A DNA stretch of 64,000 nucleotides from Conexibacter sp. CPCC 206217 (GTDB taxonomy: Bacteria; Actinomycetota; Thermoleophilia; Solirubrobacterales; Solirubrobacteraceae). A model generated the notes under the pieces. The model made no database searches and had not been told where the DNA came from. It saw only the letters and a list, made by a program, of their open reading frames with translations. The stretch spans positions 434,001 through 498,000 of the forward strand of contig NZ_JAUTDO010000003.1 in the NCBI RefSeq assembly GCF_030646165.1. The letters run 5' to 3'. This document shows, piece by piece, positions 5,272 to 13,109 of this stretch. The position numbers and the translations under genes are program-made. Position 1 is the stretch's first letter, and each line of letters starts with the position of its first letter.

Positions 5272-5708
5272 CCGTTCAGCTCCTTCTGCAGGCGCGCGAG
5301 CGCGTCGCGGTAGCCGTCGGGCCCTCTGCCGGCGACGGTCTCGATGCAGAGGTCGCGGATCACCGAGACACGGCGCCACTCCTCCCGTTGGTGCACGTCG
5401 GACAGGTGCACCTCGACGCTCGGCAGCCTCGCGATCTCCAGCGCGTCGCGGATCGCCCACGAGTAGTGCGTCCAGGCGCCCGGGTTGAGCACGAGGCCGT
5501 CGGCCATCTCCCCCGCGCGGTGCAGCTGCTCGACGAACGCGCCTTCGAAGTTGCTCTGGAAGAACTGCACGCGCAGGCCGAGCTCGTCGGCGAAGCCGGT
5601 GATCGTGCGCTCCAGCTGGTCGAGCGTGAGGGTCCCGTAGTGGCTCGCGTCGCGGCGCCCGAGCTGGTCGAGGTTGACGCCGTGCAGGACTGCGATGCGG
5701 CTGCTCAT
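5268..5708 (-). CDS. aroQ: 3-dehydroquinate dehydratase, type II
   Basis: 146 residues, the normal length of the dodecameric type II enzyme, which converts 3-dehydroquinate to 3-dehydroshikimate. The flexible lid is LGRRDASHYGTLTLDQ, containing the catalytic Arg and Tyr. NPGAWTHYSWAIRDAL carries the substrate-binding Asn and the His, VEVHLSDVHQREEWR the second His/Arg region, and the C-terminal GRGPDGY is also conserved. The usual LNGPNLNLLG opening reads LHGVNLDQLG. Start and stop codons each overlap their neighbours by 4 bases (ATGA) with aroKB upstream and pepQ downstream. Confidence 0.95.
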   Translation of the reverse strand: MSSRIAVLHGVNLDQLGRRDASHYGTLTLDQLERTITGFADELGLRVQFFQSNFEGAFVEQLHRAGEMADGLVLNPGAWTHYSWAIRDALEIARLPSVEVHLSDVHQREEWRRVSVIRDLCIETVAGRGPDGYRDALARLQKELNG

Positions 5709-7297
5709 GCGGGTGCGGCTCCCTTTGCCTGCGCAAGCTCGACGACGGCTGCGCGCAGATCCTCGTCGCCGACCTGGCAGCCCGGCCGCGCCGCGCCGGG
5801 TCCGTCGAGCAGCACGAACGGGACGGGCGCGCCGCTGCGGCGCTTCTTGTCGCGCGCGGTCGCGGCTATGACCGCGTCGAGGTCGACCGCGCCGGGGGTC
5901 AGCTGCGTCGGCAGGCCCTGGGCCGCCAGCAGCCCGGCGACCTCGTCGCGCAGGTCGTCCTGGCCGGAGAGCCGCAGCGCCGCCAGCAGGCCGAGGCCGA
6001 CCGCCTCGCCGTGGCGGAACATCGCGTAGGAGGTGACCGTCTCGATCGCGTGGCCGACGGTGTGGCCGAGGTTCAGCACCTGCCGCACGCCGCCGTCGCG
6101 CTCGTCCAGCGCGACGACCGCGAGCTTCGTGCGGGCGCACTCGAAGATCGTGTCCTCGTCGGGTGGGTCGCCGGCGCGGACGCGCTCCCACAGGTGTCCG
6201 CCGGCGATCAGCGCGGTCTTGACGACCTCCGCGTAGCCGGCGGCCGCCTCCTCGCGCGGAAGCGTCTCGAGCGTGTCGACGTCGACGACGACCGACGACG
6301 GCTGGTGGTATGCGCCGACGTAGTTCTTCGCGCTCGGGAGGTCGACGCCGGTCTTGCCGCCGTAGGCGGAGTCGACCTGCGAGACGATCGTCGTCGGGAC
6401 CTGCACGATCGGCACGCCGCGCTGGTAGGTCGCCGCGACGAAGCCCGCGAGGTCGCCGACGACGCCGCCGCCGAGCGCGACGAGATGGTCGCTCTGCGTC
6501 ATCCCGTGCTCGCCGAGCGCGACCCAGACGGTCTCGGCCGTCTGCAGCGTCTTGTGCGTCTCGCCCGCGGGGATCGTGATCGTGGCCTTGAGACCGTCGC
6601 CGAGGCTTGACGCGTAGCGCGGCCCGACCTGGTCGTCGGTCACGAGGTAGCCGTCGCCCTGCACCGGCGAGAGCGCCGAGCCGAGCAGGCCGCGGCCGAC
6701 GAAGACGGGGTAGTCGCCGGAGTCGCTCGTCGCCCACAGCAGGCGCGTGCCGGCGGGCGCGTCGCGTAGCGCGAGGATCGACGGCAGCGCGTCGTCGATC
6801 CGGTCCCTGTGGTCGGCCGGCAGCACCGCGTCGGCGGCGGCCATGTACATCGGCCGGCGGCGGATGTAGAGGTCGCGGAAGTCCTGCGGGTCGCGTGCGA
6901 GCGGGCGGCCGCGGCCGGCGGCGCGCTCCCAGGCGGCGTTGACGTCGACGTCGAGCAGGATCGTCGTGTGGCGTCTGAGCGCGGCACGGATCCGCGCCGA
7001 GTGCAGGGCGCCGCCGCCGAGCGAGAAGATCCCTCCGCGCGCCTGCTCCAGCATGTCGCCGACGAGCCGCTCCTCGAGCTCGCGGAAGGCGGCCTCGCCC
7101 TGCTCCGCGAAGCAGCGGTCGATCGGCATGCCGAGGTGCTCGGCGATCGCGGCGTCGGCGTCCTGCACCTCGACGCCGAAGCGTCTGGCGAGGCGGCGGG
7201 CGGCCGTCGTCTTGCCGGCGCCCATGAAGCCGACGAAGACGAGCGCGCCGTCGTCGGGCAGCTTCGGCTGCGGCTGCGTGCGGCTCAGCGGCGCCAT
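5705..7297 (-). CDS. aroKB: Bifunctional shikimate kinase / 3-dehydroquinate synthase (AroK-AroB fusion)
   Basis: A single 530-residue reading frame. Residues ~18-170 are a shikimate kinase: P-loop GFMGAGKTT, the DADAAI substrate loop, FRELE and the GGG motif of the shikimate site, and the lid RGRPLA. Residues ~185-530 are a complete 3-dehydroquinate synthase: ETHKTLQT, ALGGGVVGDLAGFVAATYQR, the VPTT..QVDSAYGGKTGVD segment, and Zn ligands in GYAEVVK, LNLGHTVGHAIE and FRHGEAV. The protein would catalyse steps 2 and 5 of chorismate synthesis. Fusion in this order (K then B) is known from Thermotoga. Its start lies 13 bases inside aroC and its stop overlaps the aroQ start. Confidence 0.95.
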   Translation of the reverse strand: MAPLSRTQPQPKLPDDGALVFVGFMGAGKTTAARRLARRFGVEVQDADAAIAEHLGMPIDRCFAEQGEAAFRELEERLVGDMLEQARGGIFSLGGGALHSARIRAALRRHTTILLDVDVNAAWERAAGRGRPLARDPQDFRDLYIRRRPMYMAAADAVLPADHRDRIDDALPSILALRDAPAGTRLLWATSDSGDYPVFVGRGLLGSALSPVQGDGYLVTDDQVGPRYASSLGDGLKATITIPAGETHKTLQTAETVWVALGEHGMTQSDHLVALGGGVVGDLAGFVAATYQRGVPIVQVPTTIVSQVDSAYGGKTGVDLPSAKNYVGAYHQPSSVVVDVDTLETLPREEAAAGYAEVVKTALIAGGHLWERVRAGDPPDEDTIFECARTKLAVVALDERDGGVRQVLNLGHTVGHAIETVTSYAMFRHGEAVGLGLLAALRLSGQDDLRDEVAGLLAAQGLPTQLTPGAVDLDAVIAATARDKKRRSGAPVPFVLLDGPGAARPGCQVGDEDLRAAVVELAQAKGAAPA

Positions 7298-8451
7298 CCG
7301 ATCCGCTCCTCATAGGCGCTGACGGCCTCGCGCACGTCGTCGATGTGGTCGCCGCCGAACTTTCTGCGGTACGCGTCCGCGACGACATGGGCGAGCATCG
7401 CCTCGCCGACGACGCCGGCCGCCGGCACCGTGCAGGAGTCGGTCCGCTCGCGCAGCGCCTGCGCCGGCTCGTGCGTGTCGATGTCGACCGAGCGCAGCGG
7501 CTTGGTCAGCGTCGGGATCGGCTTCATCGCGACCTTCACGAGGATCGGCTCGCCGGTCGTCATGCCGCCTTCGAGCCCACCGGCGTGGTTGGTCGCGCGA
7601 AAGTATCCGCGCGTCTCGTCGAAGAAGATCTCGTCGTGCGCCTGCGAGCCGGGCACGCCTGCGATGTCGAAGCCCTCGCCGATGCCGACCCCCTTCATCG
7701 CCTGGATCGACATCATCGCCATCGCGATGCGGCCGTCGAGCCGCTCCTCCCACGAGATGTGGCTGCCGAGGCCCGGAACGACGCCGAACGCGATCACCTC
7801 GAACGTGCCGCCGAGCGACTCGTTGTTCTTGCGCAGCGTCGTGATCTCCTGGACCATCGCTCTGCTGGCGTCCGCGTCGAGGCAGCGGACCGGCGACTCG
7901 TCGACGTGCTCGAAGTCCGCGACGGTGAGGGCGCGGTCGAGGACCGGCGCTCTGACGGAGGTGATCTGCGTGACGTGCGAGCGGATCTCGACGCCGACCG
8001 CCTTCAGGAACGCCTTCGCGAGCGCGCCGCCGGCGACGCGGGCCGCGGTCTCACGCGCGCTGGCGCGCTCGAGGATGTTGCGCACGTCGCCGGTGCGGTA
8101 CTTCCAGGTGCCGACGAGGTCGGCGTGGCCGGGGCGCGGAAGATGGACCTCGGGGATCGATCTCTCGACCGGCCACGGGTTCATCCGCTCTTCCCAGTTG
8201 GCGAAGTCTCTGTTGGGGATCTGCAGCGCGACCGGGCCGCCCATCGTGCGGCCGTGACGCACGCCGGCGGTGACATCGGCGCGATCTCTCTCGATCTTCA
8301 TCCGGCCGCCGCGGCCGAAGCCGAGCTGGCGGCGCGCCATGTCGGCGTTGATCGCGTCCTGCTCGAGCTCGAGCCCGGCGGGGAGTCCTTCGACGATGCA
8401 TGTGAGGCCGGGACCGTGCGACTCGCCGGCAGTGATGAGACGGAGCGCCAT
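7285..8451 (-). CDS. aroC: Chorismate synthase
   Basis: 388 residues, the usual length. Signature regions visible are the N-terminal MALRLITAGESHGPGL, the FMN-contact stretch RADVTAGVRHGRTMGGP, ERASARETAARVAGGA, and the C-terminal SVDIDTHEPAQ and TDSCTVPAAGVVGEAM segments. It makes chorismate from EPSP by trans-1,4-elimination of phosphate, using reduced FMN as a catalyst. It is first in the leftward aroC-aroKB-aroQ-pepQ operon and has its own -10-like box 10 bases before the ATG, so it is transcribed separately from the glcD gene upstream. Confidence 0.96.
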   Translation of the reverse strand: MALRLITAGESHGPGLTCIVEGLPAGLELEQDAINADMARRQLGFGRGGRMKIERDRADVTAGVRHGRTMGGPVALQIPNRDFANWEERMNPWPVERSIPEVHLPRPGHADLVGTWKYRTGDVRNILERASARETAARVAGGALAKAFLKAVGVEIRSHVTQITSVRAPVLDRALTVADFEHVDESPVRCLDADASRAMVQEITTLRKNNESLGGTFEVIAFGVVPGLGSHISWEERLDGRIAMAMMSIQAMKGVGIGEGFDIAGVPGSQAHDEIFFDETRGYFRATNHAGGLEGGMTTGEPILVKVAMKPIPTLTKPLRSVDIDTHEPAQALRERTDSCTVPAAGVVGEAMLAHVVADAYRRKFGGDHIDDVREAVSAYEERIGWRR

Positions 8452-8461
8452 GAGGCGTTGA

Positions 8462-8467
8462 AGGTTA
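8462..8467 (-). promoter_or_regulatory. -10 box of the aroC operon
   Basis: TAACCT, 10 bases, then the aroC ATG at 8451. It lies in the 112-base gap between glcD and aroC and would drive the four-gene aro operon as a (nearly) leaderless transcript. Confidence 0.5.
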
Positions 8468-8563
8468 GTTGGCGGGCGGGCGTGGACGCTGCGTCGCCTC
8501 CGCGCGGCTTCGTTGGACGCCGCGCGCGCTCGCGCCGCCCGCCCGTGTTCCGCTGCGGCGCGC

Positions 8564-9937
8564 TCAGATCGCCTTGCCGGGGTTGAACAGCCCGTGCGGG
8601 TCGAACGTGCGCTTGATCGCGCGGTGCAGCTCGTGCGCCGCGCCCAGCTCCTGCGCGAGAAAGTCGCGCTTGAGCAGGCCGACGCCGTGCTCGCCCGTGA
8701 CGGTGCCGCCGAGCTGCAGCGCGAGTCTGACGAGCGCGGCGAACGCCTCCCGCGCGTGCGCGACCGCGTCGGGATCGCGGTGGTCGTAGACGATCGTCGG
8801 ATGCATGTTGCCGTCGCCGGCGTGGCCGAAGGTGCCGATCACGACGCCGTGCGCCGCGGCGATCTGCTCGATCCCCTCCAGCAGCGCGGGGATCTTGCCG
8901 AGCGGGACGCCGACGTCGTCCAGCAGCGTCGCGCCCTGGCGCTCCAGCGCCGGATACGCGAGCCGGCGCGCGGCCATCAGCATCCGCCCCTCGGCCTCCT
9001 CGTCGGTCGTGAGCGCGAGGGTCGCGCCGGCCTGCTCGCACCACGCGGCCATCTCGTCGACGGCTTTCAGCGCCTGCTCGCCGCCGAGGTCGCTGCGCGC
9101 GAAGACGAGCGCTGCGACGCCCTGATCGAGGTCCTGCGGCGCCATCTGCTCGACGGCCTGGATCGTCGTGCGGTCCATCAGCTCCAGCACCGAGGGGGTG
9201 CTGCTGCGGCTGATCTTCGCGATCGCCGCGCCGGCGGCGCCGAGCGTCGCGAAGCTGGCGGCGAGCGTCGCGGAGCTGCGCGGCGGCGGGAGCAGGCGCA
9301 TCGTCGCCTCGGTGACGATCCCGAGCGTGCCCTCCGAGCCGCAGATCAGCGACGCGAGGTCGTAGCCGGCGACCCCCTTGCGCGCGCGCCGCCCGATCCG
9401 CACCGCTCTGCCGTCGGCGAGCACCAGCTCGAGTCCGAGCAGCGCGTCGCGCGTGACGCCGTACTTGACGCAGCAGAGCCCGCCGGCGTTCGTCGCGATG
9501 TTGCCGCCGATCGTGGAGAACTCGAAGCTGGCGGGATCGGGCGCGTAGAAGAGCCCCTCGCGCTCGGCGGCCGCGCGCAGCTGTGCGTTGACGAGGCCGG
9601 GCTGCACGGTCGCCAGCAGCGACGGCCCGTCCAGTTCGACGACGTCGGTCATCCGCTCGGTGCTGATCACGACGCAGCCGTCGATCGCGTTGGCGCCGCC
9701 GGACAGTCCGGAGCCGGCGCCGCGCGGCACGACGGGAACGCCGTGGGTCGCGGCGGCGCGCACGGCGTGCTGCACCTCCTGGGTGGTGCGCGGCCGCACG
9801 ACGGCGGCGGGCGTGCCGGCGGCGACCAGCCCGGGCGCGGCCTGATCGTGCCGGTAGGAGGCGAGCACCTCCGGATCGGTGACGACGTCGCCGGAGCCGG
9901 CGAGGTCGTCGAGCAGGCGGTCGGCGGTGGCGGTCAT
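8564..9937 (-). CDS. glcD: FAD-linked glycolate / D-lactate oxidase (GlcD-like)
   Basis: 457 residues. The N-terminal PCMH-type FAD-binding domain contains PRGAGSGLSGGA (about 70-81), the FSTIGGNIATNAGG loop and CGSEGTLGIVTEATM. The C-terminal FAD-oxidase domain ends with the family marks GTFGHAGDGNMHP, GEHGVGLLK and DPHGLFNPGK. These fit GlcD and D-lactate dehydrogenases, which oxidise 2-hydroxyacids to 2-oxoacids. No GlcE or GlcF subunit gene is next to it, so it may act alone. The ATG start has a GGAGG site at about -13 and overlaps the regulator's stop codon (ATGA), so the two are translationally coupled. Confidence 0.88.
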   Translation of the reverse strand: MTATADRLLDDLAGSGDVVTDPEVLASYRHDQAAPGLVAAGTPAAVVRPRTTQEVQHAVRAAATHGVPVVPRGAGSGLSGGANAIDGCVVISTERMTDVVELDGPSLLATVQPGLVNAQLRAAAEREGLFYAPDPASFEFSTIGGNIATNAGGLCCVKYGVTRDALLGLELVLADGRAVRIGRRARKGVAGYDLASLICGSEGTLGIVTEATMRLLPPPRSSATLAASFATLGAAGAAIAKISRSSTPSVLELMDRTTIQAVEQMAPQDLDQGVAALVFARSDLGGEQALKAVDEMAAWCEQAGATLALTTDEEAEGRMLMAARRLAYPALERQGATLLDDVGVPLGKIPALLEGIEQIAAAHGVVIGTFGHAGDGNMHPTIVYDHRDPDAVAHAREAFAALVRLALQLGGTVTGEHGVGLLKRDFLAQELGAAHELHRAIKRTFDPHGLFNPGKAI

Positions 9938-10791
9938 GCGGAGGTTCCTCCGAGCGGCGAGCTGCCGCTGGTCCGTTGGTCTGATGGTCGGCTGGCGAGC
10001 GGGTCGCCTGCGCGGGCCGCTGCGCGCGGCTCGGCGGCAGCTGTCGCGCGCTCGGCGGAGCGGTAGAAGCCCATCACGTGGTCGCGCAGCAGCAGTTCGG
10101 CGTCGCGACCGTCGCCGGCCTCGACGGCGGCGAGGATCGCCTCGTGCTGGCGCGTCAGTCTGTTCAGCGTCCGCTGCGGCGCCGGCAGCGCGCGCAGCGC
10201 GTCGAGCAGGTGCGCGGAGACGGAGTCGCGCACGGCGAGCATCACGAGTTGAAGCGCCTCGTTGCCGGAGGCGGCGACGAGCGCGACGTGGAAGCGCACG
10301 TCGGCGCGCTCGAATGCGGCCACGTCGTCTCCGACGGCCCGCATCTCCTCCACCTCCCGGTGCGCATCGGCGAGGCAGGCGGCACGGTGGCGGGACGCCT
10401 CGGCGCGAGCGTCGGTGGCGTGCAGCCGCGTCGCCGCACCCGCGACCGCGGCCGCCTCCAACGCGCAGCGCAGCTCCACGAGGTCGGCGAGCGGGACGCG
10501 GCCGAGGCGCATGAGGTGGACGAGGCTCTCGCGCAACGGGCCGGTCGACAGCGACTCGGCCGGCGGGACGCGCAGCGGGGCGGTCGGTCCGCTCGCGACG
10601 GCGAGGCCCTGGGCCTGGAGCGCGCGCAGCGCCTCGCGCACCGTCGTGCGGCTGACGCCGAACTGCGCGCACAGCTCGCGCTCGGCAGGCAGCTCCTCCC
10701 CCGGCGCCAGCGCACCGTCGAGGATCGCCTCGCGCAGCTGATGCGCGACCTGCTCGTAGGCCGGATTGCGGATGACTTCGCTGAACGCCAT
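9934..10791 (-). CDS. FadR-subfamily GntR transcriptional regulator
   Basis: 285 residues. Residues ~10-75 form the GntR winged helix (LREAILDGALAPGEELPAER, then SRTTVREALRALQAQGL). The rest is an all-helical FCD effector domain with conserved FHVALVAASGN and the His of RQHEAIL. FCD regulators such as LldR, GlcC and PdhR respond to small organic acids. The ATG is supported by a TATGGT -10 box 7 bases upstream, and two perfect FadR-type operators lie on its own promoter (10792-10802, 10818-10828), so autorepression is likely. It is coupled to glcD through an ATGA overlap. The last ~25 residues are low-complexity Ser/Arg. The ligand is inferred from glcD to be glycolate or lactate. Confidence 0.88.
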   Translation of the reverse strand: MAFSEVIRNPAYEQVAHQLREAILDGALAPGEELPAERELCAQFGVSRTTVREALRALQAQGLAVASGPTAPLRVPPAESLSTGPLRESLVHLMRLGRVPLADLVELRCALEAAAVAGAATRLHATDARAEASRHRAACLADAHREVEEMRAVGDDVAAFERADVRFHVALVAASGNEALQLVMLAVRDSVSAHLLDALRALPAPQRTLNRLTRQHEAILAAVEAGDGRDAELLLRDHVMGFYRSAERATAAAEPRAAARAGDPLASRPSDQRTSGSSPLGGTSA

Positions 10792-10802
10792 TGGTCGGAC
10801 CA
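10792..10802. promoter_or_regulatory. FadR-type operator O1
   Basis: TGGTCGGACCA fits the FadR-subfamily consensus TNGTNNNACNA with a perfect TGGT/ACCA dyad. It covers the -10 box and immediate start region of the regulator gene, so bound protein would block transcription of the regulator-glcD operon. Confidence 0.75.
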
Positions 10803-10828
10803 TATCTCTTTGACTGCTGGTCTGACAA
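10799..10828 (-). promoter_or_regulatory. Promoter of the fadR-like/glcD operon
   Basis: -35 TTGTCA (10823-10828) and -10 TATGGT (10799-10804) are separated by 18 bases; the -10 is 7 bases from the ATG at 10791. The -35 lies within operator O2 and the -10 within operator O1. Confidence 0.65.
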
Positions 10829-10839
10829 GCGGGTACGAT
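10810..10839 (+). promoter_or_regulatory. Promoter of the pfpI-like gene
   Basis: -35 TTGACT (10810-10815), an 18-base spacer and -10 TACGAT (10834-10839), facing away from the regulator promoter and overlapping it. Operator O2 sits inside the spacer. It predicts a 5' leader of about 85 bases before the ATG at 10931. Confidence 0.6.
10818..10828. promoter_or_regulatory. FadR-type operator O2
   Basis: TGGTCTGACAA matches TNGTNNNACNA; its dyad is less perfect than O1. The centre is 26 bases from O1. It overlaps the -35 of the regulator promoter and lies between the -35 and -10 of the divergent pfpI promoter, so one protein could control both directions. Confidence 0.65.
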
Positions 10840-10930
10840 AAAGGTGTCGGTCCGCTCGCCAGCAGGAGCGCACTGCCGCTTCGCCTGCGAACCGGTCCGG
10901 TCGACGACCGCTCTAGAGAGGGAGTTCCCC

Positions 10931-11497
10931 ATGGCGAAGGTCCTGCTGCTGACGGGTGACGCTGCCGAGTCGCTCGAGGTGATGTACCCGTACCAGCGAC
11001 TGCTGGAGGACGGCCACACGGTCGACATCGCCGCGCCGACGGTGAAGAAGCTCCAGTTCGTCGTGCACGACTTCGTCGACGGCTTCGACACCTACACCGA
11101 GAAGCTCGGCTACACGTGGCCGGCCGACGTCGCGTTCGCCGACGTCGACCCCGCGGACTACGACGCGCTCGTGATCCCCGGTGGCCGCGCGCCCGAGTAC
11201 ATCCGCAACGACGCCGACGTGAAGCGGATCGTGCGCCACTTCGCCGAGGCCGACAAGCCGCTCGCGCATCTCTGCCACGGCCCGCTCTGCCTTGCCAGCG
11301 CGGGCGTGCTGAGCGGCCGCCGCTCAGCGGCTTACCCGGCACTGGCGCCCGACGTCGAAGCGGCCGGCGGCACGTTCGTCGACGACGAGGCGGTCGTCGA
11401 CGGGTCGATGGTCTCCGGCCGCGCCTGGCCCGACCACCCGGCGTGGATGCGCGCGTTCATGGCGATCCTGCACGAGCGCGAGCCGGCGACCGCCTGA
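10931..11497 (+). CDS. DJ-1/PfpI-family protein
   Basis: 188 residues, full-length for a single-domain DJ-1/PfpI protein. The nucleophile elbow is AHLCHGPLCLASAG (about residues 113-126), with the reactive Cys followed by His, and the partner Glu is in IPGGRAPEYIR. The ATG is preceded by a good GGGAG site. Family members have been described as intracellular peptidases, chaperones, glyoxalase III enzymes and deglycases; glyoxalase III activity turns methylglyoxal into lactate and glyoxal into glycolate. Divergent from the FadR-like regulator and glcD and apparently under the same operators, which makes a reactive-aldehyde role attractive but unproven. Confidence 0.85.
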   Translation: MAKVLLLTGDAAESLEVMYPYQRLLEDGHTVDIAAPTVKKLQFVVHDFVDGFDTYTEKLGYTWPADVAFADVDPADYDALVIPGGRAPEYIRNDADVKRIVRHFAEADKPLAHLCHGPLCLASAGVLSGRRSAAYPALAPDVEAAGGTFVDDEAVVDGSMVSGRAWPDHPAWMRAFMAILHEREPATA

Positions 11498-11515
11498 CGC
11501 GCGGCGCGGCGCCCC

Positions 11516-12067
11516 CTACCCCAGCCACCACTCGCTCAGCTCGGCGCCGGCGGCGAACGCGACGCAGGCGCCGAGCGCGAGGAACGGACCGAGCGGGAGC
11601 GTCGCCTCGCGGGCGCTGCGGATGCCGCGGCGGATCGCCAGCGCCGCGCCGGCGAGCGCAGCGGTCACCAACGCGACGAGCAGCGCGACGACGACGGTGC
11701 TCTCCAGCAGCAGGCCGAGGACGGCGGCGAGCTTGACGTCGCCCATCCCCATGCCGTCGGGCCGGATCAGTGCCGCGGCGAGCAGGAAGCCACCCGCCGC
11801 CGTTCCCCACAGCAACTGCGCCGGCAGCCGCGCGGGATCCGCGACCAGCCCGATCGCGAGCGCCGCGAGCGCCCCGGCCGCGGTCAGCCGGTTGGGGATC
11901 AGGCGCCGGTCGAGGTCGATCCAGGTGACCGGCACCAGCAGCGCGACGAGCGTCGCGCCGATCAGCCGCTCACGCGTGCCGTCGGCGACGAGGACGACGA
12001 GCGCGAGCAGCGTCGCGCCGGCACAGGCCAGCGCGATCTGCAGTCGGAGTGAGTGTCGATGCGCCAT
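11516..12067 (-). CDS. Prepilin peptidase (A24, short form)
   Basis: 183 residues with about six membrane helices. It contains both aspartates of the A24 aspartyl proteases: TWIDLDRRLIPN (about residues 48-59) and GMGMGDVKL (about 105-113, the GxGD motif). It lacks the N-terminal methyltransferase domain of PilD, as in TadV/CpaA-type enzymes. It would cleave type IV pilin or Flp-like leader peptides at the membrane. No pilin or assembly genes are in this window, so its substrates are elsewhere. No clear ribosome site or -10 box precedes the ATG. Confidence 0.85.
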   Translation of the reverse strand: MAHRHSLRLQIALACAGATLLALVVLVADGTRERLIGATLVALLVPVTWIDLDRRLIPNRLTAAGALAALAIGLVADPARLPAQLLWGTAAGGFLLAAALIRPDGMGMGDVKLAAVLGLLLESTVVVALLVALVTAALAGAALAIRRGIRSAREATLPLGPFLALGACVAFAAGAELSEWWLG

Positions 12068-12229
12068 CCGCCGCTGGATCGGCGGGCGGCGTCACCGTGT
12101 TGAGCGGCGCCGCGCCAGAGCGGACGGATGCCCGGCCGCGTCCCCGCGAGCGAGGCCCGGATGCCCGCCTGCGTCGCCGGCCCACGGGGCCCGGCGCGTG
12201 AATCGAGCCCCGCGCGGCAGCCCGCTCGC

Positions 12230-12433
12230 TCAGTCCGCCGCCGCTGGCGGCGGGGCGTCGCCGCGCAGGACGACCCCCGCTTCCTGGGCGTTGTGCTCAG
12301 GGATGTAGGTGCCGCTGCCTTCGCACCAGGGGCAGGTGATCTCGTTCGGCGTGCCGCCGAGGCCGGAGATCACTCTGCCACTGCCGCGGCAGGCGCGGCA
12401 CTGGTCGTCGGGGATCGGTTCGTCTGAGGACAT
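12230..12433 (-). CDS. Small protein with two CxxCxGxG motifs
   Basis: 67 residues with CRACRGSG (about 12-19) and CPWCEGSG (about 34-41), the DnaJ-type zinc-finger repeat, so it probably binds one Zn ion with four cysteines. The stretch between is short (ISGLGGTPNEIT) and the C-terminus is Ala/Pro-rich. Such mini-DnaJ zinc proteins occur in many actinobacteria without a known function; protein-protein contact or RNA/peptide binding is conceivable. The TACCCT box 9 bases before the ATG supports a real transcription unit. Confidence 0.75.
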   Translation of the reverse strand: MSSDEPIPDDQCRACRGSGRVISGLGGTPNEITCPWCEGSGTYIPEHNAQEAGVVLRGDAPPPAAAD

Positions 12434-12442
12434 GGGCGCGCC

Positions 12443-12448
12443 AGGGTA
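12443..12448 (-). promoter_or_regulatory. -10 box of the small zinc-motif gene
   Basis: TACCCT, 9 bases, then ATG at 12433; leaderless-type spacing. Confidence 0.45.
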
Positions 12449-12470
12449 GCGGCATCTGGGCGGCGGCGCC

Positions 12471-13109
12471 TCAACGTCGGACCGCGAGCGCCAGTCCGTC
12501 GCCGATCGGCGTGATCAGCCCGTCGAGCTGCGGATGGCCGAGGAAGTGGTCGTTGAACGAGCGCGCGGTCGCGACGCGATCCCCGCTCCAGCCGTCGATC
12601 GGGCGGCCTTCGGCGACCGCACCCGACATCAGCACGTTGTCGACCGCGAGCAGCCCGCCGGGCCGCATCAGCGGCACGATCAGGTCGAGATGGCCTGCGT
12701 ACTCGGCCTTCAGGCCGTCGAGGAAGGCGAAGTCGAACGGTCCTTCGACCTGCGTCAGCCCCTCGGCGGCGTCCTGCAGGCGCAGGTCGACGCGCGCCGG
12801 CAGCCGTGCCCGCGCGAAGTAGCTCAGCGCCTGCGTGTGGCGCTCGCGGTCGATCTCGAACGAGATCAGCTCACCGTCCGCGGGCAGCGCCCGCGCGAGA
12901 TGCAGCGTCGAGACGCCGATCGCGGTCCCGACCTCCACGATCCGCCGCGCGCCCACCGCCCGCGCGAGCACCTGCAGGAGCGTCGCGGCCTGCGCATCGA
13001 GGATCGGGACGCTGTCGCGCGCGCCGCGCTCCTGCATCTCGGCGAGCAGCGCGTCGGGTTCTGGCCGTGTCTGGTCGAGATACGAGCGGACGGCGTCGGT
13101 CACGATCAT
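12471..13109 (-). CDS. Class I SAM-dependent O-methyltransferase (COMT-like)
   Basis: 212 residues, the length of the small O-methyltransferase family 3 (catechol/caffeoyl-CoA type, as in Mycobacterium Rv0187-like proteins). The SAM-binding motif is RIVEVGTAIGVSTLHLA (about 55-71); then come FEIDRERH at the end of strand 2, FDFAFLDGLKAEY with the metal-binding Asp, and GGLLAVDNVLMSG. Methyl acceptor unknown. A GGAGG site lies 9 bases before the ATG and is abutted by a perfect inverted repeat (13126-13140) that could act as an operator or an RNA hairpin. Confidence 0.85.
   Translation of the reverse strand: MIVTDAVRSYLDQTRPEPDALLAEMQERGARDSVPILDAQAATLLQVLARAVGARRIVEVGTAIGVSTLHLARALPADGELISFEIDRERHTQALSYFARARLPARVDLRLQDAAEGLTQVEGPFDFAFLDGLKAEYAGHLDLIVPLMRPGGLLAVDNVLMSGAVAEGRPIDGWSGDRVATARSFNDHFLGHPQLDGLITPIGDGLALAVRR

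What the first reader, a model, noticed from the sequence alone, without database searches (positions are those of the whole stretch)
8564..11497. Divergon pairing a DJ-1/PfpI protein with a GlcD oxidase under one FadR-type repressor
Two TNGTNNNACNA operators (10792-10802 and 10818-10828) lie on two overlapping divergent promoters. O1 covers the -10 and O2 the -35 of the regulator-glcD promoter. O2 also lies between the -35 and -10 of the pfpI promoter. Some DJ-1/PfpI proteins are glyoxalase III enzymes producing lactate or glycolate from methylglyoxal or glyoxal; GlcD-type enzymes oxidise exactly those acids; FCD-type GntR regulators often sense them. Together this could be a self-contained reactive-aldehyde detoxification module: aldehyde to hydroxyacid to oxoacid, induced by its intermediate. 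I know of no described system with this composition.
Basis: partly seen in the sequence, partly recalled or inferred. Interest (0 to 1): 0.72.

Follow-up and report, generated by a model that had tools for sequence, protein, structure and literature searches.

The report
Conserved aldehyde-to-oxoacid gene switch
A bacterium controls two small-molecule enzymes, one likely to turn toxic aldehydes into hydroxyacids and one likely to oxidise those hydroxyacids, from a single DNA switch that recurs in distant bacteria, sometimes with an unrelated aldehyde-detoxifying type of enzyme in the same slot.

Summary
In detail: glcD-like (8564-9937, -), an FCD/GntR regulator (9934-10791, -) and pfpI (10931-11497, +) share an intergenic region with two dyads at the stated places. 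One dyad, O2 (10818-10828), is a conserved operator; O1 (10792-10802) was seen only in this genome. In 18 loci with an orthologous regulator (11 of 232 order genomes, 2 more in the phylum sample, 5 of 27 Myxococcus), 18 keep an O2-type site. The gene sharing it is pfpI in 8 (4 lineages, 2 phyla, 3 gene orders), a non-homologous glyoxalase-I-like VOC gene in 3, a GMC oxidoreductase pair in 2, an isochorismatase-like hydrolase in 1, none in 4. Site plus TTGACTG -35 precede pfpI in 8 of 8 regulator-linked loci and 0 of 74 unlinked ones. Two paralogues of the regulator lie in vanRS-like operons beside vanHAX-like genes (VanH makes D-lactate). Best reading: a repressor-controlled module turning methylglyoxal/glyoxal into D-lactate/glycolate, then pyruvate/glyoxylate, D-lactate being the likeliest effector. 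Synteny and operator conservation are shown; chemistry and effector are inferred. Four of five same-genus loci lack pfpI, and GMC and isochorismatase partners do not fit simply. New combination of known families.

The parts
8564..9937 (-). GlcD-like FAD-dependent D-2-hydroxyacid oxidase/dehydrogenase (457 aa)
   Evidence: Pfam FAD_binding_4 and FAD-oxidase_C far above cut-off; best PDB match 9qgz 'Glycolate oxidase', 421 bits, and D-lactate dehydrogenase 8jdc; R324, H372, H379, E416, H417 align with LDHD Arg347, His398, His405, Glu442, His443; below the NCBIfam GlcD equivalog cut-offs
9934..10791 (-). FadR/FCD-type GntR regulator (285 aa); start codon directly beside O1, stop overlapping the glcD start (ATGA)
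   Evidence: Pfam GntR and FCD above cut-off; metal-site residues D164, H168, H216, H238 invariant in the 8 rows of A1 and in a vanHAX-linked paralogue
10792..10802 (.). O1, perfect dyad TGGTCGGACCA, over the -10 and start region of gntR; seen in this genome only
   Evidence: no site at this position in the 17 other orthologous loci
10799..10828 (-). gntR-glcD promoter TTGTCA-18-TATGGT, 7 nt from the -10 to ATG (predicted leaderless)
   Evidence: similar spacing in most relatives by eye
10810..10839 (+). pfpI promoter TTGACT-18-TACGAT with O2 in the spacer
   Evidence: TTGACTG + operator in 8 of 8 gntR-linked pfpI loci and 0 of 74 unlinked; pattern in 3 of 396 phylum genomes, all three at a gntR orthologue
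10818..10828 (.). O2, conserved operator TGGTCTGACAA (same-genus relatives: CTGCTTGTCAGACCAGCAG)
10931..11497 (+). PfpI, DJ-1/PfpI/YhbO-type protein (188 aa), putative glyoxalase III
   Evidence: TIGR01382 174.9 bits, cut-off 139.05; closest PDB chains 'Protein DJ-1 homolog D' and PH1704; E13, E89, C115, H116 invariant in the 8 rows of A2

Best explanation
A repressor-controlled divergon for reactive 2-oxoaldehydes. The FCD-GntR dimer binds O2, a dyad placed so that one bound dimer covers the -35 of gntR-glcD and sits in the -35/-10 spacer of pfpI, shutting both (in this genome O1 adds a second block over the gntR -10). PfpI converts methylglyoxal or glyoxal to D-lactate or glycolate without a thiol cofactor; the hydroxyacid, most likely D-lactate, binds the metal-containing FCD pocket and releases the repressor; the GlcD-like flavoenzyme oxidises the hydroxyacid to pyruvate or glyoxylate. 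In sister lineages a VOC glyoxalase-I-like gene takes PfpI's place. Shown: gene order, promoter matches, conserved operator, conserved catalytic and metal residues, different partners in one slot. Inferred: repression, effector, enzyme activities, purpose.
For: An O2-type operator is kept in 18 of 18 regulator orthologue loci. Operator + TTGACTG promoter lie upstream of pfpI in 8 of 8 linked and 0 of 74 unlinked loci; the composite pattern hits 3 of 396 phylum genomes, all at this regulator (control pattern 1 hit). Linkage occurs in three gene orders: gntR-glcD <-> pfpI (own, 5 Myxococcus), gntR <-> pfpI-glcD (G554), gntR <-> pfpI followed by a more distant GlcD-like gene, 37% identical (G813/L080). 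A VOC glyoxalase-like gene is in the slot in G035, G293, G195 and directly divergent from glcD without gntR in G285 and G053. P. aeruginosa PfpI: methylglyoxal to lactate, glyoxal to glycolate, Cys112/His113 essential (PMC11987610, abstract and passages). LDHD/GlcD chemistry (PMC10589216, passages). vanRS-gntR paralogues next to vanHAX-like genes. FCD metal site (PMC7797058, passages; residues).
Against: No pfpI in the 4 other same-genus regulator loci and no PfpI match at E <= 1e-40 in the 6 other genus genomes. Partner is a GMC pair in 2 of 18 and isochorismatase-like in 1 of 18. 75 of the 80 nearest PfpI loci show no gntR/glcD orthologue in the DNA held (15 of 80 are shorter than 9 kb). PfpI-type glyoxalases are slow: about 2000-fold lower kcat/KM than GloA1, and the P. 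aeruginosa pfpI deletion was not more methylglyoxal-sensitive (PMC11987610). VOC orthologues also lie away from glcD in other genomes, the own one included. No copy of the operator lies in the van divergent regions. The PfpI misses the NCBIfam DJ-1 glyoxalase III cut-off and the oxidase misses the GlcD equivalog cut-offs.
Confidence: 0.52

Rival explanations
1. The core is a regulator-glcD operon for a 2-hydroxyacid (glycolate, D-lactate or a specific D-2-hydroxyacid from catabolism), and the divergent slot holds whichever upstream enzyme produces that acid in a given niche (PfpI, VOC, GMC, isochorismatase-like). Detoxification is not the purpose; PfpI here is a catabolic hydratase.
For: Four different partner types under one operator and four loci without a partner; glcD follows gntR on the same strand in 16 of 18 loci, and follows pfpI in the other two.
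Against: 11 of 18 partners are of glyoxalase-like families (PfpI or VOC), which would be a coincidence if the substrate were not an oxoaldehyde; they are, however, not 11 independent events (5 are Myxococcus).
Confidence: 0.28
2. PfpI acts on another substrate (protein deglycation, peptide, or an acyl anhydride like the cPGA reported for DJ-1), and co-regulation reflects a general stress response rather than a two-step pathway.
For: DJ-1 superfamily functions are disputed; cPGA hydrolysis is reported for human DJ-1 (search listing); PH1704 is reported as proteolytic (passage in PMC11987610).
Against: The partner is a small-molecule oxidase of the acids that PfpI-type enzymes are reported to produce; VOC occupies the same slot elsewhere; esterase activity was not found in four E. 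coli homologues (PMC11301059 passages).
Confidence: 0.13
3. pfpI is an incidental insertion: it landed next to an existing gntR-glcD promoter and its overlap with O2 is chance.
For: In the gntR and glcD trees the window sits among same-genus loci without pfpI; upstream similarity to them seems, by eye, to end at the operator edge.
Against: The same -35/operator geometry precedes pfpI in Myxococcus, L080 and G554 and in none of 74 unlinked pfpI loci.
Confidence: 0.04

Closest known systems
LldR/lldPRD and GlcC/glcDEF (FCD-GntR regulators next to hydroxyacid oxidases)
   Same: FCD-GntR regulator, TNGTNNNACNA-type operator, linked flavin-dependent hydroxyacid oxidase; metal-site residues as in C. 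glutamicum LldR (2DI3, best PDB match by E-value)
   Different: No permease and no glcE/glcF among the neighbours; a glyoxalase-type gene shares the operator; regulator scores far below the LldR (92.9 against 311) and GlcC (73.8 against 301) equivalog cut-offs
P. aeruginosa PfpI / E. coli YhbO / DJ-1D (glutathione-independent glyoxalases)
   Same: Same subfamily (TIGR01382), same Cys-His-Glu plus partner-protomer acid (PMC11987610)
   Different: Here in an FCD-controlled divergon with a hydroxyacid oxidase; activity untested
Glyoxalase I/II pathway feeding D-lactate dehydrogenase (LDHD, Dld)
   Same: Predicted chemistry methylglyoxal -> D-lactate -> pyruvate; VOC partner resembles glyoxalase I
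   Different: I found no description of a single-operator coupling of the two steps (open-access library only)

Membership tests
DJ-1/PfpI/YhbO subfamily (TIGR01382) | Score above curated cut-off | tested here: met
   174.9 against 139.05 bits
DJ-1/PfpI/YhbO subfamily (TIGR01382) | Catalytic Glu, nucleophile-elbow Cys-His, acid from the partner protomer | tested here: met
   E13, C115, H116, E89 invariant in 8 rows; E13/E89 align with PH1704 E12/E74, counted by eye
Glyoxalase III (enzyme) | Thiol-free conversion of methylglyoxal to lactate | not testable with these tools
   needs an assay; shown for the P. aeruginosa relative (PMC11987610)
NCBIfam DJ-1 family glyoxalase III equivalog (TIGR01383) | Score above curated cut-off | tested here: not met
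   45.5 against 131.25 bits: PfpI/YhbO branch instead
NCBIfam deglycase PfpI equivalog (NF040823) | Score above curated cut-off | tested here: not met
   147.9 against 330 bits
GlcD of the GlcDEF glycolate oxidase | Equivalog score (TIGR00387, PRK11230) | tested here: not met
   389.5 against 567.9; 291.1 against 897
GlcD of the GlcDEF glycolate oxidase | Neighbouring glcE and glcF | tested here: not met
   neighbours are aroC and gntR; the rest of the genome was not searched for glcE/glcF
[quoted passage not shown]
   residues as given for LDHD in PMC10589216
FCD (FadR-type) GntR regulators | GntR HTH + FCD domain; palindromic GT-N-AC operator nearby | tested here: met
   FadR-subfamily consensus TKGT/ACMA in PMC4494728 (passages)
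FCD (FadR-type) GntR regulators | Binding to the operator and release by a carboxylic acid | not testable with these tools
   gel shift needed
LldR equivalog (PRK10421) | Score above curated cut-off | tested here: not met
   92.9 against 311 bits
GloA lactoylglutathione lyase (VOC partner in relatives) | Equivalog/exception score (NF050074, TIGR00068) | tested here: not met
   G035 and G053 proteins: 76.6 and 86.9 against 165; 65.6 and 60.9 against 120. Candidate metal ligands of the G035 protein H7, E52, H72, E123 by eye (ligand pattern recalled)

The most novel reading that the evidence does not exclude
A self-contained, horizontally scattered detoxification cassette in which one FCD repressor, one operator and one hydroxyacid oxidase stay constant while the oxoaldehyde-removing enzyme is swapped between non-homologous families (PfpI glyoxalase III, VOC glyoxalase-I-like), with the pathway intermediate D-lactate as the inducer; a sister branch of the same regulator was recruited to a D-lactate-making vanHAX-like cluster.
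Probability: 0.42. Interest if true: 0.62.

Novelty: new variant of a known kind. Interest (0 to 1): 0.5.

Why it matters
It would give some actinobacteria and myxobacteria a genetically defined, thiol-free route for methylglyoxal/glyoxal coupled to disposal of its product, and a physiological context for bacterial PfpI proteins, whose role is uncertain because their in vitro glyoxalase activity is slow. The exchange of PfpI for a VOC glyoxalase-like protein under one operator makes the function directly testable, and the vanHAX-linked paralogues suggest a family of D-lactate sensors.

Tried and rejected
Rejected: (1) chance dyads: the strict pattern is unique in the window and O2 is conserved. 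(2) O1 as a conserved second operator: not seen elsewhere. (3) Further regulon members in genus genomes: with one mismatch allowed, 21 hits in 6 genomes against 26 for the reversed control. Two further perfect 15-mers, own C4:62648 and G005 C61:413, lie in DNA that is 88% identical over 506 bases between the two, among cobalamin-type genes by eye; taken as one shared coding coincidence. (4) Control of the VOC orthologue elsewhere in the own genome (C23:378996): not among the operator hits. (5) A general PfpI-GlcD linkage: not seen. Among 304 genes within two of pfpI, most recurrent clusters are confined to one or a few related genera, but a cluster in 6 of 80 loci of several families holds aldehyde dehydrogenases (two members checked with Pfam). 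(6) Assembly contamination (6.56% for the genome): pfpI lies between genes whose order (aroKB-aroC-glcD-gntR-pilD-OMT) is kept, wholly or largely, in four sister genomes.

Inconclusive: whether pfpI was gained by this species or kept while sisters lost it. gntR and glcD trees nest the window among pfpI-less sisters; the PfpI tree (quick method, 84 rows) needs 4 changes for the linked label, at least 2 forced by starred branches. Long branches meet, so deep order is unsafe.

Dropped before counting: of 7 genomes matched, G429, G451, G514 and G529 have no operator upstream and are not among the 18; G514 does have a GlcD-like gene (38%) behind its regulator. GlcD homologues with other contexts and no operator (G002, G285 contig 3, G381, G025) are not counted as module members. 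L109 matched only the HTH part of the regulator, 3 kb away, and is not counted. L076 had too little upstream sequence. Substrate-pocket residues of the oxidase outside the metal site fall in a gapped stretch of the LDHD alignment, so I did not use them to choose between glycolate and D-lactate. No structure prediction or fold search was run.
Full report
WHAT IS THERE. In the window, glcD-like (8564-9937, -) overlaps an FCD-type gntR gene (9934-10791, -) by ATGA, and pfpI (10931-11497, +) diverges from them. The unit lies between aroC (7285-8451) and a prepilin-peptidase gene (11516-12067). The loose motif is near chance in 64 kb (5 against 3.3 expected), but TKGTCNGACMA, framed after seeing the sites, occurs only at O1 and O2 (0.09 expected; 0 of 100 shuffles reach 2). 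The only two sigma-70-like promoters found in 8000-12500 are the two overlapping ones described (0.1 expected). The gntR -10 ends 7 nt before its ATG, so the gene is predicted to be leaderless.

CONSERVATION OF THE SITE. Genome G003 has 6,359,369 bases, the size I recall for Conexibacter woesei, so the genus is probably Conexibacter (recalled, not from a call). Among the 7 genus genomes searched (own included), gntR-glcD lie between aroC and the prepilin-peptidase gene, without pfpI, in G001, G003, G004 and G005. O2 is kept letter for letter upstream of gntR in all four (TTGTCAGACCA). O1 is in none. Over the loci with an orthologous regulator and neighbourhood, 18 of 18 have an O2-type site: 17 fit T[GT]GTNNGAC[AC]A on the gntR strand, and L080 fits it as TGGTATGACAA on the pfpI strand.

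HOW MANY AND WHERE. Order search: 11 of 232 genomes at E <= 1e-55. Phylum sample: 7 of 396 at E <= 1e-45, of which own, G554 and G593 have the operator and a close glcD; G429, G451, G514 and G529 have no operator upstream, though G514 has a GlcD-like gene (38%) behind its regulator. Genus of Myxococcus: 5 of 27, all five with gntR-glcD divergent from pfpI. Partner under the operator: pfpI 8 (own; G813, which by coordinates is the genome of L080; G554; five Myxococcus), VOC 3 (G035, G293, G195), GMC pair 2 (G210, G144), isochorismatase-like 1 (G593), no divergent gene 4. In G195 a second operator precedes the same GMC pair (92-95% identical) beyond the VOC gene; G210 and G144 have two operators. 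In G285 (contig 2) and G053 the VOC gene is divergent from glcD directly, without gntR or operator. VOC orthologues also exist away from glcD, in the own genome among others, so VOC-glcD adjacency is not universal.

CONTROL ON THE PFPI SIDE. The 80 nearest PfpI loci were fetched with up to 6 kb flanks (15 of 80 are shorter than 9 kb). Five have the gntR orthologue beside pfpI (four Myxococcus, L080); a sixth hit, L109, is an HTH fragment 3 kb away. Four of the five have the close glcD (57-58%) and L080 a more distant GlcD-like gene (37%). Of 82 pfpI loci with enough upstream sequence (the 80 less L076, plus window, L206, L232), the operator and the TTGACTG -35 are present in 8 of 8 gntR-linked and 0 of 74 unlinked ones; the loose motif is in 1 of 74. 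The composite pattern TTGACTGNTKGTNWGACMA occurs in 3 of 396 phylum genomes, own, G554 and G593, each next to this regulator; the reversed control pattern gave 1 hit. This pattern fits the pfpI and isochorismatase promoters, not the VOC or GMC ones. The overlap of O2 with the pfpI promoter is therefore a conserved feature.

GENE ORDERS AND HISTORY. pfpI and a GlcD-like gene are tied to this regulator in three arrangements: gntR-glcD <-> pfpI (own, Myxococcus; in some Myxococcus up to about 470 bases separate the gntR and glcD reading frames); gntR <-> pfpI-glcD, with glcD similarity starting within 15 bases of the pfpI match (G554); gntR <-> pfpI followed by a 37%-identical GlcD-like gene (L080/G813). 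In the gntR and glcD trees the window is nested among pfpI-less same-genus loci. Linked PfpI proteins fall in four places of the PfpI tree, at least two forced by well-supported branches. Gain in this species and loss in sisters cannot be told apart.

THE PROTEINS. PfpI belongs to TIGR01382 above cut-off; best PDB relatives are 'Protein DJ-1 homolog D' (Arabidopsis, recalled) and PH1704; E13, E89, C115 and H116 are invariant in 8 rows. In PMC11987610 (abstract and passages) P. aeruginosa PfpI turns methylglyoxal into lactate (kcat 102-103 per min, KM 369 uM) and glyoxal into glycolate, Cys112 and His113 being essential; the authors also report about 2000-fold lower efficiency than GloA1 and no methylglyoxal phenotype of the deletion. 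The GlcD-like protein is closest in PDB to 9qgz 'Glycolate oxidase' (421 bits; organism not shown by the tool) and has the LDHD subsite-A residues (R324, H372, H379, E416, H417). Glycolate and D-lactate cannot be separated by sequence here. The regulator's D164, H168, H216 and H238 are invariant, the Asp/three-His metal set described for LldR and other FCD proteins in PMC7797058 (passages). The VOC partners match glyoxalase I families but below their equivalog cut-offs (G035 and G053 proteins; PDB for G035) and Pfam Glyoxalase above cut-off (G195 and G285 proteins).

EFFECTOR. The closest paralogues of the regulator in the own genome (C1:872456; 54%, 55% in A3) and in G003 (C1:1479426) are the third gene after a response regulator and a histidine kinase and diverge from vanH-vanA-vanX-like genes. 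Own genome, by NCBIfam: D-Ala-(R)-lactate ligase 613.5 against 550 and VanX 382.7 against 320, above cut-off; VanH 526.6 against 540, VanR-O 436.1 against 505 and VanS-O 506.5 against 720, below. In G003 the ligase (598.3) is above and VanH (526.7) just below; its other genes were matched by eye only. The paralogues group with the G035 regulator at 100/100 and the own one keeps the metal residues. VanH makes D-lactate (established knowledge), so D-lactate is the best guess for the effector. Against: no copy of the operator lies between the divergent van-like genes.

READING AND LIMITS. The best reading is a repressor-controlled oxoaldehyde -> D-hydroxyacid -> oxoacid module. The weak points are the pfpI-less same-genus loci, the GMC and isochorismatase partners, and the lack of any biochemistry. 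A rival I take seriously is that gntR-glcD is a hydroxyacid operon whose divergent slot holds whichever enzyme makes the acid in that niche.

LITERATURE. Searches of the open-access library for this composition gave no description of it. PMC12694930 (passages) cites PfpI as a methylglyoxalase and discusses a PfpI-domain regulator of glyoxylate genes; PMC11389411 (passages) links glyoxal, glycolate and glcD in P. aeruginosa by inference. Neither passage set describes a divergon like this. Most subscription papers were not searchable.

Noticed in passing
L057 1823-7200 (G000 contig 1) and L058 6445-11777 (G003): A paralogue of the FCD regulator is the third gene after a VanR/VanS-like pair, divergent from vanH-vanA-vanX-like genes (NCBIfam; several G003 genes by eye); an unexpected third regulator in a van-type cluster.
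   Followed up: partly
L174 3607-5750 (G195), L172 7870-10099 (G210), L173 2401-4591 (G144): Operators of the same type also precede a pair made of a 156-aa protein without a Pfam match and a GMC oxidoreductase, conserved at 86-95% in the three genomes, so the regulon can include a second oxidoreductase.
   Followed up: partly
L207 7302-7907 (G593): An isochorismatase-like hydrolase occupies the divergent slot of gntR-glcD with the same TTGACTG/operator geometry as pfpI elsewhere.
   Followed up: partly
L054 6137 (G035): A second operator-like site TGGTCTGACCA lies just past the 3' end of the VOC gene, where no promoter is expected.
   Followed up: no
L061 6753-8414, L110 6738-8252 and four more of the 80 PfpI loci: A cluster of aldehyde-dehydrogenase-family neighbours lies within two genes of pfpI in 6 of 80 loci outside the module (two members confirmed by Pfam), another hint of aldehyde chemistry.
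   Followed up: partly
window 5705-7297: A 530-aa reading frame looks like a shikimate kinase-3-dehydroquinate synthase (AroK-AroB) fusion by eye, conserved at 78-90% in four same-genus loci.
   Followed up: no
L109 6599-7984: A pfpI gene outside the module is followed by another FAD-linked oxidase (looks DprE1-like by eye), a possible different PfpI-oxidase pairing.
   Followed up: no
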